64,000 nucleotides of DNA from Chromobacterium subtsugae. Lineage in GTDB: Bacteria; Pseudomonadota; Gammaproteobacteria; Burkholderiales; Chromobacteriaceae. The stretch covers positions 124,001-188,000 of the forward strand of contig NZ_JYKA01000001.1 of NCBI RefSeq assembly GCF_001676875.1, written 5' to 3'. The notes beneath the pieces are model-generated. The model saw nothing but the letters and a program-made list of their open reading frames with translations. It ran no database searches and was not told the origin of the DNA. Positions 53,231-63,759 of this stretch are shown here, in pieces. The stretch's first letter is position 1. Every line of letters begins with the position of its first letter. Position numbers and translations under genes: made by a program.

Positions 53231-55668
53231 TGAACTTCCGCATTTTGATCGTCGAAGACGAACGCATCATCGCGATGGATCTGCAGCTGCAGTTGCAGGC
53301 GCTGGGCTACGCGGTGTGCGCCGTGGTGGCCAGCGGCCCTCAGGCGATAGACAAGGCGCTGGAGCTGCGCCCGGACCTGGTGCTGATGGACATCCACCTG
53401 GAAGGCGCGATGGACGGGGTGGAAGCCGCGCGCGAAATCCACCAGCGCCTGAGGATCCCCATCATTTTCCTCAGCGCCTATGCCGAAGACGCCACCTTGC
53501 AGCGGGCGGAAAGCGCGCTGCCCTACGGCTATCTGGTCAAACCGGTATCGCCGCGCGAACTGCACGCCACGCTGCAGATGGCGATGGTGCGTTTCGGCAT
53601 CCAGCGCGGCAGCGACGAACAGGTGGAGCGCTTTTGCAAGGCGATGGAGGCCGCGCAGCTGGAAGTGTGGGAATGGCATGTCGAAATCGACCAGATGAAT
53701 GTATTCAGCCTGAACGACAATGACATGCGTTCGCTCAGTTCGGTGCTGTGCGAGTCGATCCGCAGCTTCCTGCAGCATATCGACCCGCGCGACGAATCCG
53801 AAGTGGCCAGCGCGATCAACCGCACCCGCCAAGGCGGCGACAGCTTCAACGTCAGCTTCCGCCTGCGCGCCGACGACCAGGCCGATGTCCGCTGGATGGA
53901 GGCCCACGGCAAGCGCTTCGACGACGGCGAACGCGGCGGCCGCATCATAGGCGTGATGCAGGATGTCACCGAGCGCCGCCGCGCCGAGGAGAGGCTGCGC
54001 CAGGCGGTGACGGTGTTCGAATCCACCGCCGAAGGCATCGCCATCCTCGACGCCGGCCGCAAGGTGATATCGGCGAATCCCGCCTTCAGCCAGCTCACCG
54101 GCTACGCCGAGGACGAGGCCAAAGCCTGGCCCAGCATCGACGCGTTGTACCAAGTCCCGCACAGCTCGCCCTTCCTGGAGCAGCTGCGCCATGGCGAGCG
54201 GCAGATGTGGCAAGGCAACGCCAGCTATCTGCACCGGAACGGCGCCGCGCTCTGCATCTGGGAAAGCATCAGCATCGTACCCGGTCCGGACGGCACCATC
54301 GGCAACTACGTGCTGGTGTTTTCCGACATCAGCTCGGTGCTGGCGGTGCAGGAGCAGTTGGACTTTCTGGCCAAGCACGACCCGCTGACCAGCCTGTGCA
54401 ACCGCCGCATGCTGCACGACAGGCTGGAATACGAACTGGCGCAGGCCGCGCGCCACGGCAGCATGGTGGCGGTGCTGCTGCTGGACCTCGACCACTTCAA
54501 GACCATCAACGATTCGCTGGGCCACGGCGTCGGCGACCAGGTGCTGGCGCTGGTGGCCAGGCGGCTGCAAAGCTGCATGCGCGCCAGCGACACCGTGGCC
54601 AGGCTGGGCGGCGACGAATTCTGCATCGTGTTCGGCGGCATCGGAACGCTGGGCGATGTCGATCAGGTGGCGCAGAAAGCGTTGGCGCGGCTGGCCGAGC
54701 CGATCGAGCTGGAGCACATGACCTGCTACGTAACCGGCAGCATAGGCATCGCTTTGTCGCCCGCCGACGGCGCCAGCGTGGACGAGTTGCTGCGCAACGC
54801 CGACCAGGCGATGTACGGCGCCAAGCACGCCGGCCGCAACCGCTGCTGCTTTTACGCGCCGGCCATGCAGAAAGCCGCCGAAGTCCGGCTGCGGATATCC
54901 AGCGGCCTGCACGAGGCGCTTGAGCGCAAGCAGCTGCTGCTCGCGTATCAACCCATCGTCGAACTGGGCACCGGACGCGTGCACAAGGCGGAGGCGCTGC
55001 TGCGCTGGCGCCACCCGCAGCAAGGCAATATCGCGCCAGCGGCTTTCATTCCCATCGCGGAAGAGTGCGGCATGATAGGCGAGCTCTCCGAGTGGGTGCT
55101 GGACGAAGCGCTGCGCGCCGCCCGAATCTGGCGCGAAACCCTGCGGCCCGACTTCCGGATATCGATCAATGTGTCGGCCCTGCATTTCCGCGAAAAACAA
55201 AACCACCAGCGCTGGTTGCGCAAACTGGCGGACAGCGGCGTGCCCGGCGACGCGTTGGTGCTGGAAATCACCGAAGGCGTGCTGCTGGGCGCCGATTACG
55301 CGGTGCAGGAGGCGCTGGAGCGCTATCACGCTGCCGGCATCCGCATCGCGCTGGACGACTTCGGCACCGGCTATTCGGCGCTGTCTTATCTGAAACGTTA
55401 CCGGCTGGACTACCTGAAGATAGACCAGTCCTTCGTCCGCCAGATCGCCGAGGACGCGCGCGATTTGGCGCTGTGCGAAGCCATCATCATGATGGCGCGC
55501 AAGCTGGGGCTGGAGGTGATCGCCGAAGGCGTGGAAACCGAAGCGCAGGCTGCCATCCTGCGCGCCAACCGCTGCCAGTACGCGCAAGGCTTCCTGTATT
55601 CCCAAGCGCTGCCGGCGGACGAATTCTCCGCCTGGCTGCAAAGAAGCGACGGCATCGCCGTTCCATAG
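53230..55668 (+). CDS. response regulator with PAS, GGDEF and EAL domains
   Basis: An 812-residue protein: receiver domain (1-125, phospho-acceptor D54 in VLMDIHLEG, K in YLVKPVSPREL), PAS domains (about 135-255 and 258-385), GGDEF domain with intact LGGDEF active site, and EAL domain with KAEALLRWRHP and DDFGTGYSAL. Both the cyclase and the phosphodiesterase signatures look intact, so it may switch between making and breaking cyclic di-GMP on phosphorylation by the kinase encoded upstream. Confidence 0.92.
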   Translation: MNFRILIVEDERIIAMDLQLQLQALGYAVCAVVASGPQAIDKALELRPDLVLMDIHLEGAMDGVEAAREIHQRLRIPIIFLSAYAEDATLQRAESALPYGYLVKPVSPRELHATLQMAMVRFGIQRGSDEQVERFCKAMEAAQLEVWEWHVEIDQMNVFSLNDNDMRSLSSVLCESIRSFLQHIDPRDESEVASAINRTRQGGDSFNVSFRLRADDQADVRWMEAHGKRFDDGERGGRIIGVMQDVTERRRAEERLRQAVTVFESTAEGIAILDAGRKVISANPAFSQLTGYAEDEAKAWPSIDALYQVPHSSPFLEQLRHGERQMWQGNASYLHRNGAALCIWESISIVPGPDGTIGNYVLVFSDISSVLAVQEQLDFLAKHDPLTSLCNRRMLHDRLEYELAQAARHGSMVAVLLLDLDHFKTINDSLGHGVGDQVLALVARRLQSCMRASDTVARLGGDEFCIVFGGIGTLGDVDQVAQKALARLAEPIELEHMTCYVTGSIGIALSPADGASVDELLRNADQAMYGAKHAGRNRCCFYAPAMQKAAEVRLRISSGLHEALERKQLLLAYQPIVELGTGRVHKAEALLRWRHPQQGNIAPAAFIPIAEECGMIGELSEWVLDEALRAARIWRETLRPDFRISINVSALHFREKQNHQRWLRKLADSGVPGDALVLEITEGVLLGADYAVQEALERYHAAGIRIALDDFGTGYSALSYLKRYRLDYLKIDQSFVRQIAEDARDLALCEAIIMMARKLGLEVIAEGVETEAQAAILRANRCQYAQGFLYSQALPADEFSAWLQRSDGIAVP

Positions 55669-55971
55669 CGCCGCCGCGCCATCGCGGCGGAAACCTGCCA
55701 CCGCAGCCACGCCTCCCAATCACGCTGATGGCGGGTCAAAACGGAAAGCTCCGCCTGTGGCCGCGGCCGGCGGCACACGCGCGGCCCGGACGCGCGCCAG
55801 GCTGCCATGCCGCCGGAATTCGGCGCTCATCCGTCTGGGATCCGCTGCTAAAACGTAGTTACTGACCTTAATATCAGTCTATGCCGGCGCTTAAGGGTTT
55901 GAACTCCGCCCTGCCCCTGAATATGATGCTGACAGGGCATCTGCCCGCTACACGAATAGGATAGACACGCA
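55669..55971. other. intergenic and 5' leader region of the cold-shock gene
   Basis: About 300 bases. The last 110 or so probably form the long 5' leader typical of csp mRNAs. I see no separate gene. Confidence 0.45.
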
Positions 55972-56175
55972 ATGGCAACTGGCACCGTAAAGTGGTTCAA
56001 CGACGCAAAAGGTTTCGGCTTCATCACTCCGGACGAAGGCGGCGACGATCTGTTCGCTCACTTCTCCGCGATCAACACCGGCGGCTTCAAGTCGCTGAAG
56101 GAAGGCCAGAGAGTCAGCTTCGACGTCATCTCCGGCCCGAAAGGCAAGCAAGCCTCGAACATCCTGCCGCAGTAA
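55972..56175 (+). CDS. cold-shock protein, CspA family
   Basis: A 67-residue single cold-shock domain: [20 protein letters not shown] with RNP1 (KGFGFI) and RNP2 (DLFAHFSAI) RNA-binding motifs. An RNA chaperone. A perfect terminator follows within 25 bases. Confidence 0.97.
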
Positions 56176-56196
56176 ACGCGCTGCGATAGGCATGAA

Positions 56197-56222
56197 AAAA
56201 AACCGGCGGCAGCCGGTTTTTT
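56197..56222. terminator. bidirectional rho-independent terminator
   Basis: AAAAAACCGGC-ggca-GCCGGTTTTTT, an 11-bp perfect stem with T runs in both directions. It ends the csp transcript and the convergent minus-strand peptide operon. Confidence 0.9.
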
Positions 56223-56245
56223 CATTGCGCCCAGCAACCGCGCGG

Positions 56246-56683
56246 CTAGGCCCCCTTCAAGTAGATGTCCGGCCGGTGCAGCTCCATATACCGCTCCGGA
56301 TGCTCCAACGCGGTGAAACCGAACGGCAGGTAAACCGCATGGGCATTGGACGTGACCAGCACCATGCGGCGCAGCCGACGCAACGCCGGCTCGTCCGCCA
56401 TCCTTTGCATCAGCTGCCTGGCATAGCCGCGGCCGCGGCACTCCGGCACCACGAACACATCGCACAAATAGCCGAAAGTCGCCAGGTCGGTGACCACGCG
56501 GGCGAAACCCACCTGGCGCTCCCCCAGATAGGCGCCGTAGCACAGCGAGCCGGCTATCGCCTGCTCGACGGTGGCGCGGGCAATGCCTTTGGCCCAGGGG
56601 GCGTGGTCGCGCAGGAAGGCATGGATCAAACCGACATCCAGCCGGTGCTTGTCGGTGGAGATTTGCAGCCTATCGTCTTTCAT
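56246..56683 (-). CDS. GNAT-family N-acetyltransferase, last gene of the peptide operon
   Basis: A 145-residue GNAT protein: VGFARVVTDLATFGYLCDVFVVPECRGRGYARQLMQRM is the acetyl-CoA-binding core (RGRGYA is the Q/RxxGxG/A loop), followed by LVTSNAHAVYLPFGF. It overlaps the EamA stop by 4 bases (ATGA). In this context it may acetylate the pathway product or give self-protection; both are inference. Confidence 0.88.
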   Translation of the reverse strand: MKDDRLQISTDKHRLDVGLIHAFLRDHAPWAKGIARATVEQAIAGSLCYGAYLGERQVGFARVVTDLATFGYLCDVFVVPECRGRGYARQLMQRMADEPALRRLRRMVLVTSNAHAVYLPFGFTALEHPERYMELHRPDIYLKGA

Positions 56684-57603
56684 CGGTGTGGAAGCTCCTT
56701 GATGGCCAGGTGGGCGCGCTGCAGCCAACTCTTGCAAGCGGCCAGCCGGCCCGAATAAATGTTCAGCGCCAGCGCCGCCACGATCAGCGCCGAGGCCAGG
56801 ATGCTCAGGCTGTCGTAGCGTTCTCCCAGAATGAGGTAGCCGCCCAGCAGGCCGAACACCGGGCTGAGCAAGGAAAACGGCGCCACCAGCGATGCCGGGT
56901 ACAGGCTGAGCAGCTTGCCCCAGCTCCCCAGCGCGAACAGCGTGCCGATCAATGCCAGGAACAGCAGCGCCAGCAGCCCGATCCAGGAAAAATGGGCCAG
57001 CGCGCTCCATGCCGCGGCGGGTCCGCCCTCCAGCGCGAGCGACAGCACCAGCAGCGGCAGCGGCGGCACCGCGCTCATCCATACGGTGAAGCCGAACATG
57101 TCCACCTTGCCGGAGCGCTTCAGCTCGATATTGCCCCAGGCGAAGCCCGCGGCGCCCATCAAGGCCAGCAGCAGCGGCAACAGCGGCAAGGCGTCATGGT
57201 AGCGGGCATAGCCAAGAAGCAGCACGCCCAGCAAGGCCAGCGCCATCACCGCCTTCTGCGTCGCCGAGCGGTTTTCCTGCAACAGCGCGGCGGCCAGCAG
57301 CAGGGTGATGAACACCTGCACCTGGGCCAGCACCGCCACGATGCCGGCCGGCATGCCCAGCTTGATGGCGGAGAACAAGCCGGCGAACTGGATCACGCCC
57401 AGGCACAAGCCAGCGCGCAGATACAGCCGCCGCGGCAGCGTCGGCCGCGGAAACAGCCAGACCCCGGCCACGAACACCACCATGAAGCGCAGCGCCGCCA
57501 GCAGCAGCGGCGGGCACTGGGTCAGCCCTATCTTCACCACGATGAAGCTCAGGCCCCAGATCGCGGCCACCAGCACCGCCAACAATACGTGCGCCGTCTT
57601 CAT
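56680..57603 (-). CDS. EamA/DMT-family transporter
   Basis: A 307-residue, ten-helix drug/metabolite transporter with two EamA repeats (AIWGLSFIVVKIGLTQCPPL; second repeat ALMGAAGFAWGNIELKRSG onward). The family exports small metabolites and amino-acid derivatives. It is coupled by 4-base ATGA overlaps to both the aminotransferase and GNAT genes, so it most likely exports the product of this operon. Confidence 0.9.
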   Translation of the reverse strand: MKTAHVLLAVLVAAIWGLSFIVVKIGLTQCPPLLLAALRFMVVFVAGVWLFPRPTLPRRLYLRAGLCLGVIQFAGLFSAIKLGMPAGIVAVLAQVQVFITLLLAAALLQENRSATQKAVMALALLGVLLLGYARYHDALPLLPLLLALMGAAGFAWGNIELKRSGKVDMFGFTVWMSAVPPLPLLVLSLALEGGPAAAWSALAHFSWIGLLALLFLALIGTLFALGSWGKLLSLYPASLVAPFSLLSPVFGLLGGYLILGERYDSLSILASALIVAALALNIYSGRLAACKSWLQRAHLAIKELPHR

Positions 57604-58859
57604 GGCATTTCCTCCTCTTCTTCCAGCGCGGCCAGCGCGCGCCGGTACGCGTCCAGGAAATAGTCCAGCTCGTCCTCGCCCACCGTCAGCGGCGGCAGCA
57701 GCCGCAGCGCGTCGGCATCATGGGCGGCGGGCGCGGTGAGCACACCCTCGGACAATAATTGCAGCCACAAGGCGCCGGCGGCCTGCTCGCCGAAACGCCG
57801 CTTCGCCCGCGGCGTGGCGCGCAAGGCCAGCATCAGCCCAGCGCCCTCCAGCGCAAACAGGCCATCCGGCCAGGCGCGGCGCAGATAGGCCGAGCGCGCG
57901 GCGGCCCTGGCCGGCGCGTCTATGCCGCGCAGCGCCGCCAGCATATGCAGCCCGCAGCGCATGGCGAGCCGGTTGCCGCCGAAGGTGGAGCCGTGGATCT
58001 TGGCGCAGCCGGGCCGGGCGAACACCGCTTGATAGATCGCGTCGCGAAACAGTATCGCCGACACCGGCACGATGCCGCCGGTCAGCCCCTTGGCCAGCAG
58101 CAGCATGTCCGGCGGCGGCCCGCCCAGCGCCTGGTAGGCGAACCAGGCGCCGCAACGTCCCAGGCCTGACTGCGCTTCGTCGTAGATCAGCCAGGCGCCG
58201 TGGCGGCGGCACAGCGCCGCCAAGCCATGCAGCGCGTCCGCGCGCCACGCCCGCGCGCCGGCGCTGCCCTGCACTGGCTCCAGCATGACCGCGGCCACGT
58301 CGTTCGCCGCCAGCGCGGCTTCCGCCGCGGCAAGGTCCCCCCACGGCAGCCTCAGCACCGCCTCATCCTCCGGCAAACCCTGCCGCCAGAAATCGCTGCC
58401 GGCCAGCTGGGTGGCGGCAAGCGTCAAACCATGGAAACCGCCTTCGAAAACTATCGCGCGCGCCCTGCCGCAGGCCATGCGCGCCAGCTTCAGCGCGCCT
58501 TCCACCGCCTCCGCTCCGCTGCTGGCGAACAAGGCCTTGCCGCCAGCCAGGCCCGCCAAATCCAGCAAGCCCGCCGCCAACTCGCCAGCTGACGCCGACC
58601 AGCCCAGCGGGTGCAAATTGGGGGTGGGATCCATCAAGTCTTGCGCCAGCAGAGCCGACAAGGCCGGCGGATTATGGCCCAGCGCCGCCGCGCCGTAGCC
58701 GGCGACGAAGTCCAGCAGGCGGCGGCCATCGTCCAGCAGCAGCCAGCTGCCGTCGGCGGCGGCGGGCTGCGCGTCCAGCCCGCATTGGCGCAAAATCTCG
58801 CGCCAGGCCGGATTGACGCAGGCCTCGTAGGCGTCACCGCTGGCCATGTCGCGCCGCAT
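57600..58859 (-). CDS. class III PLP-dependent aminotransferase
   Basis: About 419 residues of the ornithine/acetylornithine/diaminobutyrate aminotransferase fold: LFASSGAEAVEGALKLAR, FHGLTLAATQL, VMLEPVQGSAG, DEAQSGLGRCG and the PLP lysine in LLLAKGLTGGI, STFGGNRLA. It moves amino groups on an omega-amino or keto substrate. The start (58859, with GGA upstream; 58847 also possible) overlaps the end of the preceding diiron-enzyme gene, showing tight coupling. It may process a modified or released amino acid. Confidence 0.88.
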   Translation of the reverse strand: MRRDMASGDAYEACVNPAWREILRQCGLDAQPAAADGSWLLLDDGRRLLDFVAGYGAAALGHNPPALSALLAQDLMDPTPNLHPLGWSASAGELAAGLLDLAGLAGGKALFASSGAEAVEGALKLARMACGRARAIVFEGGFHGLTLAATQLAGSDFWRQGLPEDEAVLRLPWGDLAAAEAALAANDVAAVMLEPVQGSAGARAWRADALHGLAALCRRHGAWLIYDEAQSGLGRCGAWFAYQALGGPPPDMLLLAKGLTGGIVPVSAILFRDAIYQAVFARPGCAKIHGSTFGGNRLAMRCGLHMLAALRGIDAPARAAARSAYLRRAWPDGLFALEGAGLMLALRATPRAKRRFGEQAAGALWLQLLSEGVLTAPAAHDADALRLLPPLTVGEDELDYFLDAYRRALAALEEEEEMP

Positions 58860-60330
58860 AGCTGTCCAGCGAGCAGATGGCCAAGCGGCTTTGCGCGCCA
58901 TAGAAATCAGCCACCTGGTCCATCGCCCGCAGATTCAGTTCCAGCAAATAGCCCAGATTTCCCAGCGCCCGCTGCTGGGCCAGCGGCGCCAGCACCGATA
59001 TCTCGCGGAAAAACAGACGCGACAATGCCGCGTGGTTCAGCTCCAGATTGAGATCATCGTGGCGCTTGGCCACGCGCTGATAGTCGGCGCGGCCCTCCAC
59101 CAGCTCCTCCAGCCGATGGTGGACCGGATTGTCCACGCCCGGCATGCCCTCGGTCACCATGATGGAGCCGAGATAGCCTATCGGATCGTAGCGGCCCAGC
59201 ACGGTGAAGGCGTCGACATAGGCCTGGAACAGCGGCAGCGGCAGCGCCTGGTCCAGCCAGGCCGGCGGCACGCCCAATGCCTCGCAGGTCGCGCGTTCGA
59301 ACGCCTCGTGGCCCAGCTCCTCCTGAAAATAGCGGTACACCCGCTGCTTGAGCGGCGTGCGCAGGCGCTTGGTCATCAGCGGCGCGATGATTTCGACGAA
59401 GCGCTGGGTGACGTGGTACTGCTCGATGAACAGGCCCTGCACCAGCGGGCTGAATCCCGCGCCATCGGCGTTCAGCCGCCGCACATAGCGGGACTCGCCA
59501 AGCTGCGCGAGGCTGTCCAGCGCGTACTGCTCGGCGCGGCGCATGAAGTTGACGCCGCTATCCGGCTCGGTCGCCGCCGGCCGGCTCGGCAGCCGGCGCC
59601 GCGCGTCGGGCAGCGGCGCCTGCAGCAGCAAATCCATCAGGCACAGCAAATAGGCTTCGACATGGGCCGGGCAGTAAAAACCCAGGCTGTCCGGCCGCTC
59701 AACCGGCGGGGGCCGGGAGGCGGCGCGCCCGGCCAGCCCGCAGGCGTCGGCGAAGCCGTTCAGTACCCTCCGCCACAGGCCGATCAGCTGCGGCATGTTG
59801 TCGGCCAGATACAGCTTTTGCAGATAGAAGGTTTGCAACGCGAAATTGTCGCTCCACTCCGGCGCGCCTATGCCGTCCACCGTGAAGGCATCCGCCTGCG
59901 GCGCCGGCTCATCCAGCAGATTCAGCATGACCAGCGCCGCCGGCGCGTAAAGGCCGCGGTTAGCCGCAGTGGCCTCCAACAGCCGAGCCACGCAGCGCTG
60001 CGTCAGCGACTCCAGCTCCTGCCGCCGCGCCTCCAGCGCGGAATGGTCCGCCGGCGCGTCGCGGATCAGCGACAGCTCGTCCAGCTGCCGCGCCAGCGAC
60101 AGCTGCCACGACGGGGCCGATCCTTCATGAATGTCGAACCAGATTTCGGAGCCGGGATTGGCCATTGCCAGCACGCTGTCCAGCACGCGTCCGCCATCCA
60201 CTCCGGTGAAATTGATTTCGTACTCGCTGGCGTCGGCGGCCAGCACCACGGTCTGGCCGTCTTCGGCCAGATGGGCGCTGAACGGCACCAGGCGCGGCAT
60301 GCGGTAATGACTGATGCGCCAGGCTTCCAT
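58834..60330 (-). CDS. heme-oxygenase-like diiron enzyme 3 (long form)
   Basis: A 498-residue protein. The N-terminal about 95 residues resemble a small winged-helix/PqqD-like module; a 160-residue insert follows; the C-terminal domain is of the iron-containing redox enzyme (HDO) type. Probable metal ligands: E303-x2-H306 (IEQYH), E338-x2-H341 (EELGH) and H424-x8-H433 (HDDLNLELNH). The same three motifs with matching spacing occur in its two paralogues. HDO enzymes use O2 for oxidative decarboxylation, C-C cleavage or N-oxidation. GAGGAG lies six bases before the ATG. It starts 25 bases after the previous gene. Confidence 0.75.
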   Translation of the reverse strand: MEAWRISHYRMPRLVPFSAHLAEDGQTVVLAADASEYEINFTGVDGGRVLDSVLAMANPGSEIWFDIHEGSAPSWQLSLARQLDELSLIRDAPADHSALEARRQELESLTQRCVARLLEATAANRGLYAPAALVMLNLLDEPAPQADAFTVDGIGAPEWSDNFALQTFYLQKLYLADNMPQLIGLWRRVLNGFADACGLAGRAASRPPPVERPDSLGFYCPAHVEAYLLCLMDLLLQAPLPDARRRLPSRPAATEPDSGVNFMRRAEQYALDSLAQLGESRYVRRLNADGAGFSPLVQGLFIEQYHVTQRFVEIIAPLMTKRLRTPLKQRVYRYFQEELGHEAFERATCEALGVPPAWLDQALPLPLFQAYVDAFTVLGRYDPIGYLGSIMVTEGMPGVDNPVHHRLEELVEGRADYQRVAKRHDDLNLELNHAALSRLFFREISVLAPLAQQRALGNLGYLLELNLRAMDQVADFYGAQSRLAICSLDSYAARHGQR

Positions 60331-60355
60331 GTCCCGCTCCTCGTTGTCGGCGTTG

Positions 60356-61357
60356 TTACAGGTAGAGGCGCGGCATCGCCGCGTCGGCGCGGCTGTAGTA
60401 GTCGACGATTTCCTCGTCCTGCAGCGCCATGGTTTCCACGGTCAGCACCAGATTCTTCTCCACCACCAGCTGTTCTTCGCGGCCGATGGCCGAGATGTCC
60501 TCCAGCAGCTCGCCGGTGATGTCATCGTGCCCCAGCGTGTCGTTGATGTGGGCGTGGCGCAGCAGCGGCTCCCAGAATGTCCTCGCCAGGCCCTGGCGCT
60601 CGCAGCAGCGCACCAGCGCCTGATTGAATTGTTCGCCCGGCATTTCGAAAAGGAACAACACGCTCTTGAACGACAGCAGATGCTGGCGGGCGAACACGCC
60701 CAGCGCCGAGCACAAGGCGAACGTGGACGGCAGCGGCTGCAGATGCTCCAGTCCGGTCACCTCCATGTCCACGCTGGCCAGGCTGTCCGCCAGCATCTGG
60801 TCGTGGTCCAGCTCAGACATCAGAAAACGCTGCAGCGAGCGCTGGTTCTGCCGGCTATCGGCGTGCGACAGCGCCGAGGCGATCAATCCCGGCGCGGCAC
60901 GCACCAGGCAGTAATATTCCAGCGCGTAGCCGATCAGCACATTGCGCGGCGCGCTGCCGTCGGCCAGCATGCCGTACAGCCGCGAGCGGCCGCGCTTGCG
61001 CATGGCGCGCTGAGCCAGATTGCGCAGCCGCGAATTGAATTCCAGCCCGGAAATGGCGTCGGCCGGCAGCTCGAAACGGGCCTCGGTCACCAGTCCCAGC
61101 CGGTCCAGCTCCTCCAGCAGGCCAGGCAGGCTGGCCGCCATGCGGGGATGGGAGGCGCGCAGTTCCGGCATGCTGGCCGGCGCGCGCTGCAGATCGTCGA
61201 GCAAGGCCAGCAGTTCGCGCCGGCCTTCGTCGGCGACGGACAAATCGCAGGATTGGTCGCGGTACAACAGCGCGACGCCGTCTTCTTGCTCCTGGATTTC
61301 CACGCCGGCCCGCAAGGCCGGCCGGTGGAATAGATCGTGGACACCGGGTGCGCGCAT
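60356..61357 (-). CDS. heme-oxygenase-like diiron enzyme 2
   Basis: A 333-residue paralogue. Residues about 25-95 (VALLYRDQSCDLSVADEGRR ... GLLEELDRLGLVTEA) look like a PqqD/winged-helix module. The HDO motifs are E147-x2-C150 (LEYYC, Cys in place of His), E182-x2-H185 (SELDH) and H268-x8-H277 (HAHINDTLGH). The His-to-Cys change suggests altered metal binding or a structural/pseudo-enzyme role beside enzymes 1 and 3. AGGAGG six bases before the ATG; 15 bases after the previous gene. Confidence 0.75.
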   Translation of the reverse strand: MRAPGVHDLFHRPALRAGVEIQEQEDGVALLYRDQSCDLSVADEGRRELLALLDDLQRAPASMPELRASHPRMAASLPGLLEELDRLGLVTEARFELPADAISGLEFNSRLRNLAQRAMRKRGRSRLYGMLADGSAPRNVLIGYALEYYCLVRAAPGLIASALSHADSRQNQRSLQRFLMSELDHDQMLADSLASVDMEVTGLEHLQPLPSTFALCSALGVFARQHLLSFKSVLFLFEMPGEQFNQALVRCCERQGLARTFWEPLLRHAHINDTLGHDDITGELLEDISAIGREEQLVVEKNLVLTVETMALQDEEIVDYYSRADAAMPRLYL

Positions 61358-61372
61358 CGCCCGCCTCCTCTC

Positions 61373-62362
61373 TCAGTAGTCTTCGATGCGGCGCAGCAGC
61401 GGGCCGTCGCCGGAATAGTGCCGCCATACCGCGCTGTAAAAGGCGTCGTACAGTTCGACGAACAGGTGGGTCTGCGCGTGCATGCGACGCGCCGTCTCCA
61501 GGTCGACCACATCGATCTGCGAGAAGATCTGCCGGGTGAGGCTGCCGTGCTCGCCCTTGAGGTTGATGTCGGAGTGGGCCTTGACCGGGCGCAGGAAGGC
61601 GGGATCCAGCCCCAGCCGGTAGCCGGCGTCAAGAAAGGAGTCCTGGCGGATGTCCTTGCCTTCGAGCACGCCCAGCGTGGTGAAGAAGAACAGCGGATCG
61701 TTGTGCGACCAGTAAGCCAGCGCGTTGCACAATGCCATGGTCTGCGGCAGCGGCACCGTGCGCGCCAGGTCTTCGCGGCTGATGCCGATGCGGTTCAACG
61801 CCTGCAGCAACAGCTCGTCATGGCCGTACTCCTCGGCGAAGAAGGCGTTCATCGCCAGCCGCGCCCGGGTATTGGGCACGTAGGACAGCACCGGCGCGTC
61901 GAAATAGCTTTCGCGGAACAGGAAATGGTAGTTCTCGATCACCATGCCATGGAATACCTTCTCCGGTATGTCGCCGGGCCGGCTGGCGTTCTGGCAGTTC
62001 ACCCAGAATTCGTTGCGGTACAGCGTCCGGTACAGCAGCTGATTGGACAGGTCCTCGATTTCCAGCAGGATTTCCATGCCGGTCTTGCCGGCGGCCGGCG
62101 CGATCGAGCGGATCACGCCGTAATCCTCCAGGCTGGCCAGCAACTGGCGGATGCTGTCCGCCGACTGGCGCGGCAGCGCGCCCTGCACTTCCGCCTGGCT
62201 GCAGCCCCGCCCCAGCCGCGCCACCAGTTCCGCCACTTCCGCCGCGCTGGCCTGGCCGGCGGACAGCTCCAATTCTTCGTCGCCGGCAGTCTTCACCACC
62301 AGCGGCGACTGCGAAATCACTTCGCCGTTCAGGCAATAACGCGCTTCCGGTTGGTGGATCAC
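61373..62362 (-). CDS. heme-oxygenase-like diiron enzyme 1
   Basis: A 329-residue protein, first enzyme after the small peptide gene. Residues about 5-88 (YCLNGEVISQSPLVVKT ... LLASLEDYGVIRS) have the layout of a PqqD-like/RRE winged-helix domain, the type used to bind leader peptides. The HDO domain has E143-x2-H146 (IENYH), E178-x2-H181 (EEYGHDE) and H263-x8-H272 (HSDINLKGEH). I chose GTG at 62362 because GGGAGG lies eight bases upstream; a TTG at 62398 has none. Confidence 0.75.
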   Translation of the reverse strand: MIHQPEARYCLNGEVISQSPLVVKTAGDEELELSAGQASAAEVAELVARLGRGCSQAEVQGALPRQSADSIRQLLASLEDYGVIRSIAPAAGKTGMEILLEIEDLSNQLLYRTLYRNEFWVNCQNASRPGDIPEKVFHGMVIENYHFLFRESYFDAPVLSYVPNTRARLAMNAFFAEEYGHDELLLQALNRIGISREDLARTVPLPQTMALCNALAYWSHNDPLFFFTTLGVLEGKDIRQDSFLDAGYRLGLDPAFLRPVKAHSDINLKGEHGSLTRQIFSQIDVVDLETARRMHAQTHLFVELYDAFYSAVWRHYSGDGPLLRRIEDY

Positions 62363-62458
62363 GTCGCTTCCCTCCCAGGACAGCCGGCCGCCGGCCAATC
62401 CGGCGGCGCGGCAGTCCGGCAGACCGAGGGCCGCATCGCGACACCCCGGCCGGCCGGC

Positions 62459-62539
62459 TTACAGGTGAACCGGCACCAGGACCGGACGCGGATTGCGGGG
62501 TTTGACCACCACCACCGCCTCTTGCATGCTGGTTTGCAT
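62459..62539 (-). CDS. 26-residue proline-rich peptide, candidate precursor of a RiPP-like product
   Basis: A short gene with an excellent ribosome binding site (AAGGAGA, five bases before ATG 62539) at the head of the diiron-enzyme operon. The N-terminus MQTSMQEA is followed by a four-valine run and the basic, proline-rich C-terminus KPRNPRPVLVPVHL. It is too short to fold alone and is placed where a RiPP precursor is expected, 96 bases before enzyme 1. The PRP-rich tail resembles proline-rich antimicrobial peptides in composition. Whether it is modified or just a leader peptide controlling the operon is not decided by sequence. Confidence 0.65.
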   Translation of the reverse strand: MQTSMQEAVVVVKPRNPRPVLVPVHL

Positions 62540-62919
62540 TTGGCTCTCCTTTGCTTGCGGAAAAGAAACAGCGCCTGGCTCAGGCGCTTTCTTATCTTAT
62601 GCCTGACAGTCCGCCTCAGAAATATCAAATACCTGTCATAAATAACTGTTTTTAAACAGATTTAACCTACCGCGCCAGCCAAAACCTGCCGGCAGCAGGC
62701 CGCGCGCGTCTCTCCCCCCTGCCTGCCAGCGCGCCGCTCATCCGCATCGACTTGACATCGATGCCTCCCCGGCTATAACCACCACATGAATATATTCCAA
62801 ACAAGTATCAATTCTAAGTAATAACACCTATATAGCATTACCCGGCCCAACTTCCGGCCCGCCGGCTTGCATATCAAGGGAGACCACCCCGCCTCGGCAA
62901 TCCACCAGGGAGATTCGAC
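62540..62919. promoter_or_regulatory. divergent promoter and leader region of the peptide operon
   Basis: AT-rich. On the minus strand a hairpin (AGCGCCTG / CAGGCGCT, 62570-62588, 3-base loop) followed by a T-rich run lies just upstream of the peptide's ribosome binding site and could act as an attenuator or a terminator. A small dyad CTGTTT-TT-AAACAG (62646-62659) may be an operator. The region also carries the promoter of the plus-strand gene at 62920. Confidence 0.45.
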
Positions 62920-63759
62920 ATGAACCTGTTCCAACGCGCAGCCGCGCCGCTAGCCATCAGCCGCAACAACCTCGGCCCCTTGGCCGAACTGGCCGGCAAC
63001 TGGGTAGGCCACGGCTACAACATGATCGCGGTGCCCGACCACCAAAACCACAAGCCTTTTCGCCTGATCGTCAACGCCACCAAGGAAACGCTGGCCTTCA
63101 CCCCGATAGGCGGCCCGGTGCCGAATCGCGGCTCGCTGCAAAACGACATCGACATCTTCGGCCTCACCTATCTGCAACAGGTCAACGACGCCGCCACCGA
63201 CGAAGGCATTCACATCGAACCCGGCATCTGGCTGCATGTGCCCGCCACCAGCGACCCGAAAAAACCCGCCACCATCGTGCGCCAATCCACCATCCCGCAT
63301 GGCGATTCGCTACTGGCAGGGGGAGAAAGCTCCTGTGAAAAGCGCGCTCCCCACATCGCGCCGGCCAGCACCGAACCCCATCGGGTGGATGGCAAGCCGT
63401 TGCCATTCGGCTATACCGATCCCTACCAGAACGGCAAGTTTCCTCCCGGCTTCGACATGAAAAACCCCAACCAGGCGCTGGTGGACGTGCTGCAATACCA
63501 GCAGCAGCAGCTGGAGTTGAAGGTGGTCGAAACCATCAACCTGAAGGTCAGCACCAACGATGCCGGCGGCATCACCAACATTCCCTTCATCGTCAAGAAT
63601 GCCAACGCCACCCACATGGACGCCATTTTCTGGATTGAAACCGTCCAGCGCCCCGACGGCTCGCAGTTCATGCAGTTGCAGTACACGCAGACCGTGCTGC
63701 TGGTATTCGAGGAAATCGTCTGGCCGCACGTCTCGGTCGCCACGCTGCTCAAGCGCTAG
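62920..63759 (+). CDS. heme-binding-like beta-barrel protein
   Basis: A 279-residue protein without a signal peptide. GPLAELAGNWVGHGYNMIAVPDH, NRGSLQNDIDIFGLTYLQQVND, GIHIEPGIWLHVPAT, ATIVRQSTIPHGDSLLAGG and THMDAIFWIETVQ match a widespread family annotated as heme-binding or peroxidase-like, with a nitrobindin/lipocalin-type barrel. Function is not established. It is divergent from the peptide operon; a terminator follows. Confidence 0.65.
   Translation: MNLFQRAAAPLAISRNNLGPLAELAGNWVGHGYNMIAVPDHQNHKPFRLIVNATKETLAFTPIGGPVPNRGSLQNDIDIFGLTYLQQVNDAATDEGIHIEPGIWLHVPATSDPKKPATIVRQSTIPHGDSLLAGGESSCEKRAPHIAPASTEPHRVDGKPLPFGYTDPYQNGKFPPGFDMKNPNQALVDVLQYQQQQLELKVVETINLKVSTNDAGGITNIPFIVKNANATHMDAIFWIETVQRPDGSQFMQLQYTQTVLLVFEEIVWPHVSVATLLKR

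What the first reader, a model, noticed from the sequence alone, without database searches (positions are those of the whole stretch)
56246..62539. Undescribed RiPP-like operon: 26-residue peptide plus three diiron enzyme paralogues, aminotransferase, exporter and acetyltransferase
Seven same-strand genes, several with 4-base overlaps, begin with a tiny gene having an AAGGAGA ribosome binding site and a PRP-rich tail. The enzymes carry PqqD/RRE-like N-terminal modules, as leader-peptide-binding modification enzymes do. I know of no named pathway with three heme-oxygenase-like diiron enzymes, a class III aminotransferase and such a peptide.
Basis: partly seen in the sequence, partly recalled or inferred. 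Interest (0 to 1): 0.9.

Follow-up and report, generated by a model that had tools for sequence, protein, structure and literature searches.

The report
Unknown peptide pathway with iron oxidases
A bacterium carries a small operon that makes a tiny peptide ending in histidine-leucine together with iron-type oxidases that look built to grip and modify it, and the same peptide-enzyme set turns up in distantly related bacteria, so it looks like an undescribed route to a natural product.

Summary
Seven minus-strand genes (56246-62539) encode a 26-aa peptide, three heme-oxygenase-like di-metal oxidases (HDO1-3), a class III aminotransferase, an EamA exporter and a GNAT. Only two junctions are 4-base overlaps. 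The reading as an undescribed RiPP-like pathway is well supported. A 6-sequence HDO1 profile found 45 named loci; 42 have a short ORF upstream ending in His-Leu, in Pseudomonadota and Bacteroidota; a Rhodococcus plasmid adds a 17-aa version. In 39 distinct peptides (17-70 aa) the last two residues are always His-Leu. HDO1, HDO2 and HDO3 form three separate clades. The N-terminal domains of HDO1 and HDO3 are predicted as PqqD/RRE-like winged helices, the rest as HDO folds, with a characteristic Asn at one metal-ligand position. Within the three clades, HDO1 of three cyanobacteria and relic HDO3 of four Chromobacterium genomes lack both a His-Leu peptide and the ligand histidines. Best explanation: the enzymes dock on the peptide's RPxL stretch and oxidise the C-terminal His-Leu; a carbonyl is then transaminated. 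Release as a small exported amino compound is inferred. No product is known; ten searches of an open-access library showed no described system.

The parts
62459..62539 (-). Precursor-like peptide gene, 26 aa, MQTSMQEAVVVVKPRNPRPVLVPVHL; invariant C-terminal His-Leu
   Evidence: ORF and RBS; conserved in 7 of 7 HDO1-bearing genus genomes; His-Leu-ending ORF in 42 of 45 loci
62363..62458 (-). Intergenic stem-loop region just after the peptide stop
   Evidence: Folding z -2.8; 22 of 33 loci tested (many closely related) have z below -2, three have z above 0
61373..62362 (-). HDO1: N-terminal RRE-like domain (about residues 8-90) plus heme-oxygenase-like di-metal oxidase; putative ligands E178, H181, E234, H263, N267, H272 (E143 possible extra)
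   Evidence: Pfam; AF2; Foldseek; hhalign; ligand columns
60356..61357 (-). HDO2: second RRE-like plus HDO enzyme; putative ligands E182, H185, E238, H268, N272, H277
   Evidence: no structure model made
58834..60330 (-). HDO3: RRE-like domain, extra helical domain (about 96-237), C-terminal HDO domain; putative ligands E338, H341, E394, H424, N428, H433
57600..58847 (-). Class III (PLP) aminotransferase
   Evidence: PF00202 1.9e-65; NCBIfam list includes daptide aminotransferase and LysJ, both below cut-off
56680..57603 (-). EamA/DMT exporter, nearest NCBIfam model the O-acetylserine/cysteine exporter (below its cut-off)
56246..56683 (-). GNAT acetyltransferase, likely modifying or protecting step
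   Evidence: by BLAST also in Robbsia, two Paraburkholderia, Pseudomonas-type, Legionellales, Lysobacteraceae and Rhodococcus operons, not in L077-L084, the Sphingomonas/B. stagnalis/Dyella type, the TPP type or Klebsiella
62570..62588 (-). Terminator-like hairpin in the 5' leader, before the peptide's RBS
   Evidence: by eye a strong hairpin plus T run also in L071 and L024, a weaker one in the other four leaders
56195..56223 (.). Inverted repeat between A and T runs after the last gene, terminator-like
   Evidence: Read directly in the sequence; not scanned

Best explanation
A RiPP-like pathway. The 26-aa peptide is a substrate whose C-terminal His-Leu is the modified core. Its VVVVKPRNPRPVL stretch acts as the recognition sequence and docks on the RRE-like domains of HDO1-3, which place the C-terminal carboxylate and side chains of His-Leu at a di-metal centre. 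Two or three successive O2-dependent oxidations of Leu (and perhaps His) give a carbonyl-bearing C-terminus. The class III aminotransferase turns that carbonyl into an amine, peptide-bound as in daptides or after release. The modified end is then cut off as a small amino compound, which EamA exports and GNAT acetylates for self-protection or as a last step. Supported by sequence and model evidence: a conserved peptide gene, RRE-like domains, HDO folds, shared fate of peptide and active sites. Inferred: site and kind of oxidation, order of steps, role of AT and GNAT, release as a small molecule.
For: His-Leu-ending ORF upstream in 42 of 45 loci found with an HDO1 profile; 39 of 39 distinct peptides end HL, L at -6 in 38, P at -8 in 35, lengths 17-70 aa. 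The tail pattern had one unrelated hit in 1.19 Mb read in six frames. Purifying selection on the peptide. HDO1 N-domain: AF2 bbb-aaa-b; hhalign to PqqD 94%, HDO2 69%, the three N-domains to each other 95-97%, catalytic-domain controls under 2%. HDO folds: Foldseek best 3dde, CADD, PqqC, UndA, BesC, PolF; nearest solved sequence MboA, which modifies the C-terminal residue of a peptide whose carboxylate binds the metal (PMC13185094 section 10). HDO1, HDO2, HDO3 are three clades (0.957, 0.986, 1.0), so the set is old, not a local duplication. Within these clades, where the His-Leu peptide was not found histidine ligands are gone: three cyanobacterial HDO1s and four relic HDO3s. Related operons add L-amino-acid-ligase ATP-grasps and MFS pumps, a GMC oxidoreductase or a TPP enzyme: small-molecule and carbonyl chemistry. 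Precedents: daptide C-terminal transamination (PMC10036551 abstract), thiovarsolin heme-oxygenase-like protein (PMC8120280 passage).
Against: No product, mass shift or metal content is known. The operon has no protease. By BLAST the aminotransferase and GNAT are missing from the Sphingomonas/B. stagnalis/Dyella and TPP-type operons, the aminotransferase from Rhodococcus, the GNAT from L077-L084 and Klebsiella, and HDO3 from Rhodococcus. Three TPP-type HDO1s (L108-L110) have no N-terminal domain although a His-Leu peptide is present, so not every HDO need bind the peptide itself. HDO3 N-domain to PqqD is only 21% and Foldseek listed no RRE structure. The Asn at one ligand position departs from characterised HDOs. 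Cyanobacterial HDO1-HDO2 pairs exist without a His-Leu peptide and their HDO2 keeps its ligands. The HDOs of the L029 cluster, outside the three clades, keep the histidines beside a different small ORF.
Confidence: 0.72

Rival explanations
1. A RiPP whose mature product is the whole or most of the peptide with a changed C-terminus, as in daptides, rather than a released small molecule.
For: Class III aminotransferase and RRE logic recall daptides (PMC10036551 abstract; NCBIfam daptide aminotransferase 159 bits, below its 450 cut-off).
Against: Only the last two residues are strictly invariant and the rest of the peptide varies from 17 to 70 aa in all, odd for a mature peptide; the exporter here is EamA, elsewhere MFS, with no peptidase-exporter among the seven genes; ATP-grasp amino-acid ligases occur in some operons.
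Confidence: 0.22
2. The ORF is a regulatory nascent peptide (ribosome arrest or attenuation) and the HDOs act on a free small molecule.
For: Conserved C-terminus next to the stop, stem-loops after the stop (22 of 33 loci with z below -2) and a terminator-like hairpin before the ORF all fit attenuation.
Against: RRE-like domains on the enzymes; same tail in Pseudomonadota, Bacteroidota and an actinobacterial plasmid; the 55-70 aa forms are alike in their body too; the peptide sits before a TPP gene in another operon type; within the clades loss of the peptide goes with loss of active-site histidines.
Confidence: 0.1
3. The peptide is a carrier protein like LysW: something is attached to its C-terminus, modified by HDOs and aminotransferase, and released.
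For: Aminotransferase matches LysJ (149 bits, below cut-off); ATP-grasp ligases in some operons.
Against: No ATP-grasp among the seven genes here; a C-terminal Leu carboxylate is a poor attachment point compared with the Glu of LysW (recalled); His-Leu is invariant as a pair.
Confidence: 0.06
4. A peptide-derived redox cofactor or metal carrier, as PQQ or methanobactin are, kept for the cell's own use.
For: HDO fold is shared with PqqC, and the N-domain with PqqD.
Against: Exporter and acetyltransferase genes in the operon; patchy distribution (7 of 19 genus genomes) and plasmid locations; no PqqE-like radical SAM gene among the seven and no Glu/Tyr pair in the peptide.
Confidence: 0.05

Closest known systems
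MboA, mangotoxin HDO (PDB 9YPI; PMC13185094)
   Same: Nearest solved relative of HDO1 by sequence (E 0.004, E 7.6e-4); same H-x3-D/N-x4-H ligand spacing (H172, D176, H181); acts on the C-terminal residue of a peptide
   Different: Its tripeptide is made by ATP-grasp ligases, not a ribosome; a redox partner MboB; Asp176 where this family has Asn; its 250-residue chain is too short for an added RRE domain
Daptides (PMC10036551)
   Same: RRE-guided modification of a peptide C-terminus and an aminotransferase step after an oxidation there
   Different: C-terminal Thr; an oxidative decarboxylase with an accessory RRE protein, and a methyltransferase (abstract); that no HDO is involved is recalled
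PQQ pathway (PqqC, PqqD)
   Same: Heme-oxygenase-like fold of PqqC and the PqqD-type domain; a natural PqqC-PqqD fusion is known (5vrd)
   Different: No PqqE radical SAM gene among the seven, no Glu/Tyr core; PQQ synthesis by PqqC is metal-independent (PMC13108848 opening text)
Thiovarsolin-type RiPPs
   Same: A heme oxygenase-like protein is said to dehydrogenate a ribosomal peptide (passage in PMC8120280)
   Different: YcaO/TfuA thioamidation genes, absent among the seven here
PEARL pathways such as 3-thiaglutamate (recalled, not looked up)
   Same: A peptide serves as a scaffold for a small amino-acid product
   Different: There an amino acid is added from tRNA; no such gene is among the seven here, and the presumed core is encoded

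Membership tests
RiPP pathway | Ribosomal precursor gene next to the modifying enzymes, conserved across relatives | tested here: met
   42 of 45 loci plus Robbsia and Rhodococcus plasmids; selection on codons
RiPP pathway | Enzymes with a precursor-recognition (RRE) domain | tested here: met
   AF2 topology for HDO1 and HDO3; hhalign to PqqD 94% for HDO1, 69% HDO2, 21% HDO3; no RRE structure among the 50 listed Foldseek hits. Binding itself not tested
RiPP pathway | Peptide is post-translationally modified and gives a product | not testable with these tools
   Needs mass spectrometry
HDO superfamily | Heme-oxygenase-like helical fold | tested here: met
   Foldseek: HDO1 to 3dde 2.7e-6, CADD 3.7e-5; HDO3 to 3dde 1.8e-5; HDO2 by sequence only
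HDO superfamily | Three His and three carboxylate metal ligands | tested here: inconclusive
   Three His and two Glu conserved, but Asn at the Asp176 position of MboA in 28 of 28 HDO2 rows, 32 of 34 HDO1 rows and 20 of 23 HDO3 rows; an extra Glu143 is invariant in HDO1. Metal content unknown
Daptides | C-terminal Thr, oxidative decarboxylase, aminotransferase, methyltransferase | tested here: not met
   Peptide ends His-Leu; no methyltransferase among the seven genes; aminotransferase 159 bits against a cut-off of 450
Mangotoxin-type pathway | HDO plus ATP-grasp ligases making the substrate peptide | tested here: not met
   No ATP-grasp gene among the seven genes here; found in some relatives
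PQQ pathway | PqqE radical SAM and PqqA with Glu/Tyr | tested here: not met
   Neither among the seven genes
Thioamidated RiPPs | YcaO-TfuA pair | tested here: not met
   Not among the seven genes

The most novel reading that the evidence does not exclude
A widespread, undescribed RiPP-like class in which the encoded core is just His-Leu: RRE-fused HDOs with an Asn-modified di-metal site oxidise it on a disposable peptide handle, and the last one or two residues are released as a small antimetabolite amino compound, optionally ligated to amino acids by ATP-grasp enzymes, exported and held in check by an acetyltransferase. It would be peptide-templated amino-acid synthesis without a tRNA-dependent extension step.
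Probability: 0.35. Interest if true: 0.93.

Novelty: new variant of a known kind. Interest (0 to 1): 0.86.

Why it matters
It points to a family of ribosomal-peptide pathways, in Chromobacterium, Burkholderia and Paraburkholderia, Pseudomonas, Photorhabdus, Vibrio, Klebsiella, Sphingomonas, Bacteroidota and Rhodococcus, that Pfam and NCBIfam as searched here do not name. The precursor can be recognised by a simple tail rule, so the class can be mined at once. Only about a dozen HDOs have been validated (PMC13108848 section 4), so three co-occurring ones with a shared ligand change offer new chemistry, and the conserved His-Leu makes the substrate obvious and directly testable in E. coli.

Tried and rejected
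Profile scans of thin taxonomic samples (order 399, class 369, phylum 398 genomes at E 1e-25 or 1e-20, at most five candidates scored per genome) matched only 1, 2 and 3 genomes, the own genome included, and would have suggested a local oddity; the deep scan of named genomes showed this was sampling. The three loci those scans gave (L064-L066) were not studied.

I at first took the TPP-enzyme operons (L108-L110, L115) to lack a peptide; a scan of the whole loci found it before the TPP gene. The cyanobacterial loci L112-L114 stayed without one. The Enterobacter plasmid hit (38% of HDO1) was fetched and not studied further.

Considered and rejected: daptide, PQQ, thioamidated RiPP and mangotoxin membership (see membership tests). 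Pfam and NCBIfam gave no family for the peptides scanned (one long peptide had a Rib-repeat line at 14.7 bits, under half its cut-off), and Rfam none at gathering scores for 55600-63000. No sigma-70-like promoter was found in 62380-62920.

A claim that this is not in print rests on ten searches of an open-access library. Most subscription papers are not in it. Papers seen: PMC13185094 (abstract; first of six parts of the text; sections 9 and 10), PMC13108848 (abstract and opening text, section 4, passages), PMC13060819 and PMC10036551 (abstract and outline), PMC8120280 (one passage); the others only in search listings. PEARL and LysW are recalled.
Full report
1. The observation. Seven genes lie head to tail on the minus strand between 62539 and 56246: a 26-aa peptide with a good ribosome binding site, HDO1 (best start GTG 62362), HDO2, HDO3, a class III aminotransferase, an EamA-type exporter and a GNAT (Pfam). 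Junctions: gaps of 96, 15 and 25 bases, a 14-base overlap and two 4-base overlaps.

2. In the genus. HDO1 has orthologues in 7 of 19 same-genus genomes, own included (80-92% identity for the other six). All seven have the peptide just upstream, with EAVVVVKPRNPRPVLVPVHL unchanged. Over the seven, 10 codon columns vary only synonymously and 3 change the amino acid, all in residues 3-5. A degenerate DNA pattern for the tail hits these 7 of 61 family genomes, once each, and no other; read backwards it hit once.

3. Outside the genus. Protein search of plasmids found 4 records. Robbsia andropogonis plasmid p4 carries the entire operon with peptide MSQATTKQPVIVVKPRNPRPVLIPVHL. Rhodococcus gordoniae pDND3A has a 17-aa ORF MTITKKKRTIVAVAVHL before HDO1, HDO2, an MFS pump and a GNAT. 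Tistrella mobilis pTM3 has HDO1 and HDO2 fused plus HDO3. The fourth, Enterobacter, matches over 38% of HDO1 and was not pursued. A profile of six HDO1s then gave 162 candidate stretches and 45 confirmed loci in a collection of 84,980 species genomes. 42 of the 45 have a short ORF ending His-Leu before HDO1 or before the gene preceding it; the three without are cyanobacterial (L112-L114). In the 1.19 Mb of loci and window then held, the pattern P-x-[LIVM]-x3-[HY]-L-stop had one further, unrelated hit, in the window.

4. The peptide family. 39 distinct peptides of 17-70 aa: His at -2 in 39 and Leu at -1 in 39; Leu at -6 in 38; Pro at -8 in 35; Arg at -9 in 32; Pro or Ala at -4 in all 39 (40 rows typed of 47 available, the other seven repeating listed tails). 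The body before this tail differs: basic forms (VxVKPRxxRP) of 17-48 aa and 55-70-aa forms such as VHEVK..FDGKKADLYINTGTLGGKHFLFTVEKADGRPTLIAIHL. A stem-loop follows the stop in many loci: mean z -2.5 over 33 loci, 22 below -2, three above 0; close relatives are counted separately. Some have a T run. This would keep the peptide more abundant than the enzymes, but also fits attenuation.

5. Operon types (presence by BLAST to this operon's proteins unless said). A: peptide, HDO1-3, AT, EamA, GNAT (Chromobacterium, Robbsia, two Paraburkholderia, L075 and L076); L077-L084 have HDO1-3 and AT, an EamA scanned in L077, and no GNAT match. B: peptide, HDO1-3, AT, ATP-grasp with an L-amino-acid-ligase C-terminal domain, MFS, GNAT (ATP-grasp and MFS scanned in Pseudomonas L097, ATP-grasp in Enterovibrio L095; by the gap between AT and GNAT probably also L096, L098, L100, L101, L107). 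A Lysobacteraceae MAG (L099) has two ATP-grasps; a Legionellales MAG has an MFS pump, Klebsiella L104 one just under the Pfam cut-off. C: long peptide, HDO1-3, no AT: B. stagnalis with a GMC oxidoreductase next (scanned), Dyella with a similar ORF (by eye), Sphingomonas with other ORFs (not scanned). D: long peptide, TPP enzyme, HDO1-3, no AT (Pedobacter, where the TPP gene was scanned; a Bacteroidetes MAG, an alphaproteobacterial MAG and Tistrella). F: Rhodococcus as above. HDO1 and HDO2 occur together in every locus whose contig reaches past HDO1 (L102 ends there).

6. The enzymes. In a midpoint-rooted tree of catalytic domains (96 sequences) HDO1 (36), HDO2 (30) and HDO3 (24 plus three solo copies) each form one clade, support 0.957, 0.986 and 1.0. 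AF2 of HDO1 (34-row alignment): pLDDT 89.0, pTM 0.73; residues 8-87 give strands, three helices and a strand, then an all-helical domain. HDO3 (23 rows): pLDDT 89.1, pTM 0.85, same N-terminal order, an extra helical domain, then the HDO domain. Foldseek puts both on heme-oxygenase-like proteins and lists no RRE structure among the 50 best.

7. Active site. The MboA structure paper gives ligands E86, H89, E143, H172, D176, H181 (PMC13185094 section 10). In the HMMER alignment these fall, by my reading, on HDO1 E178, H181, E234, H263, N267, H272 (the PDB chain is numbered 25 higher than the paper). The set E-H-E-H-N-H is complete in 30 of 34 HDO1 rows (window plus 33 of the 45 loci; exceptions: three cyanobacteria and P. 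luminescens, which has Tyr for H181), 28 of 28 HDO2 rows, and 20 of 23 HDO3 rows (the other three have Asp for Asn). Asn in place of the Asp ligand thus marks the family. In MboA the substrate's C-terminal carboxylate binds the metal, a natural parallel for a C-terminal His-Leu.

8. Natural experiments. Four Chromobacterium genomes (G008, G009, G017, G018) have an HDO3 but no HDO1 or HDO2 at E 1e-12, beside a gene that by eye is the FMP-type heme-binding neighbour, and no match to the tail pattern. Their ORFs are intact, but in all four H341 is Arg, H424 aligns to a gap, N428 is Cys or Gly and H433 is Cys or Phe; dN/dS in the three pairs compared is 0.14-0.21, against 0.29-0.32 for three pairs of operon copies. 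So the metal site went with the peptide while the protein stayed under selection. The cyanobacterial HDO1s, also without a His-Leu peptide, have Gln, Leu and Gln at the three His positions. This ties catalysis to the peptide, though the cyanobacterial HDO2s keep their ligands, and so do the L029 HDOs, which lie outside the three clades and beside another small ORF.

9. Mechanism. Supported: a ribosomal peptide with a fixed His-Leu end, three HDO-fold proteins with RRE-like domains, an aminotransferase, an exporter and a GNAT, with peptide, HDO1 and HDO2 as the shared core. Inferred: recognition through VxVK..RPxL; oxidation of His-Leu; carbonyl formation, which would explain why different operons add an aminotransferase, a GMC oxidoreductase or a TPP enzyme; release and export of a small amino compound, suggested by small-molecule pumps, amino-acid ligases and the GNAT. 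My confidence that the peptide is the HDO substrate is about 0.85; that the product is a released small molecule about 0.4.

10. Known or new. No model in Pfam or NCBIfam names the peptides scanned or the enzymes beyond superfamily level. Ten searches of the open-access library listed no RRE-fused HDO pathway; the nearest are thiovarsolin's heme-oxygenase-like protein, MboA and daptides. I rate it a new variant of a known kind: RiPP-like logic, but a class of its own by precursor, enzymes and gene content.

Noticed in passing
L029 4522-6798 (minus) and L062 6718-10690; genome G016, contig C83: A second cluster in one Chromobacterium genome: a 61-aa ORF (ends VVGVIVK), two HDOs, a class III aminotransferase, an aldehyde-dehydrogenase-like ORF (by eye) and a third HDO-like ORF. 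The two HDOs put in the tree fall outside the three clades, so it may be a sister pathway with a different precursor.
   Followed up: partly
L058-L061; G017, G008, G018, G009: Intact HDO3 relics without the ligand histidines, under purifying selection, in genomes without the rest of the HDO set: a possible pseudoenzyme with a new role.
   Followed up: partly
window 62570-62588: Terminator-like hairpin before the peptide RBS, strong also in L071 and L024 and weaker in four other leaders (by eye); suggests attenuation of the operon.
   Followed up: partly
L103 7551-9706: Photorhabdus luminescens DSM 3368 has the peptide and HDO1-HDO2 only, with Tyr for a ligand His in HDO1: looks like an operon in decay.
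   Followed up: no
L114 7434-7694: Cyanobacterial HDO1-HDO2 pair with an 86-aa ORF upstream that has a double-glycine-type motif instead of a His-Leu end.
   Followed up: no
L068 11950-14025 (Tistrella pTM3): HDO1 and HDO2 are fused in one 691-aa protein, suggesting the two work together.
   Followed up: no
L067 10078-11475: In the Robbsia plasmid a gene annotated as a PLP-dependent aminotransferase family protein, probably a MocR-type regulator, is divergent from the peptide operon; a possibly similar ORF precedes one Paraburkholderia operon (L077 5607-7028, by eye).
   Followed up: no
window 62920-63759: Divergent FMP-type heme-binding protein (NF040572, 299 bits) beside the operon; a similar gene by eye is next to the HDO3-only relics.
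   Followed up: no
L087 5866-6963 (minus); L111 5867-6964 (minus): A further HDO on the opposite strand near the operon of two Burkholderia; the L087 copy groups with the L029 HDOs in the tree.
   Followed up: no
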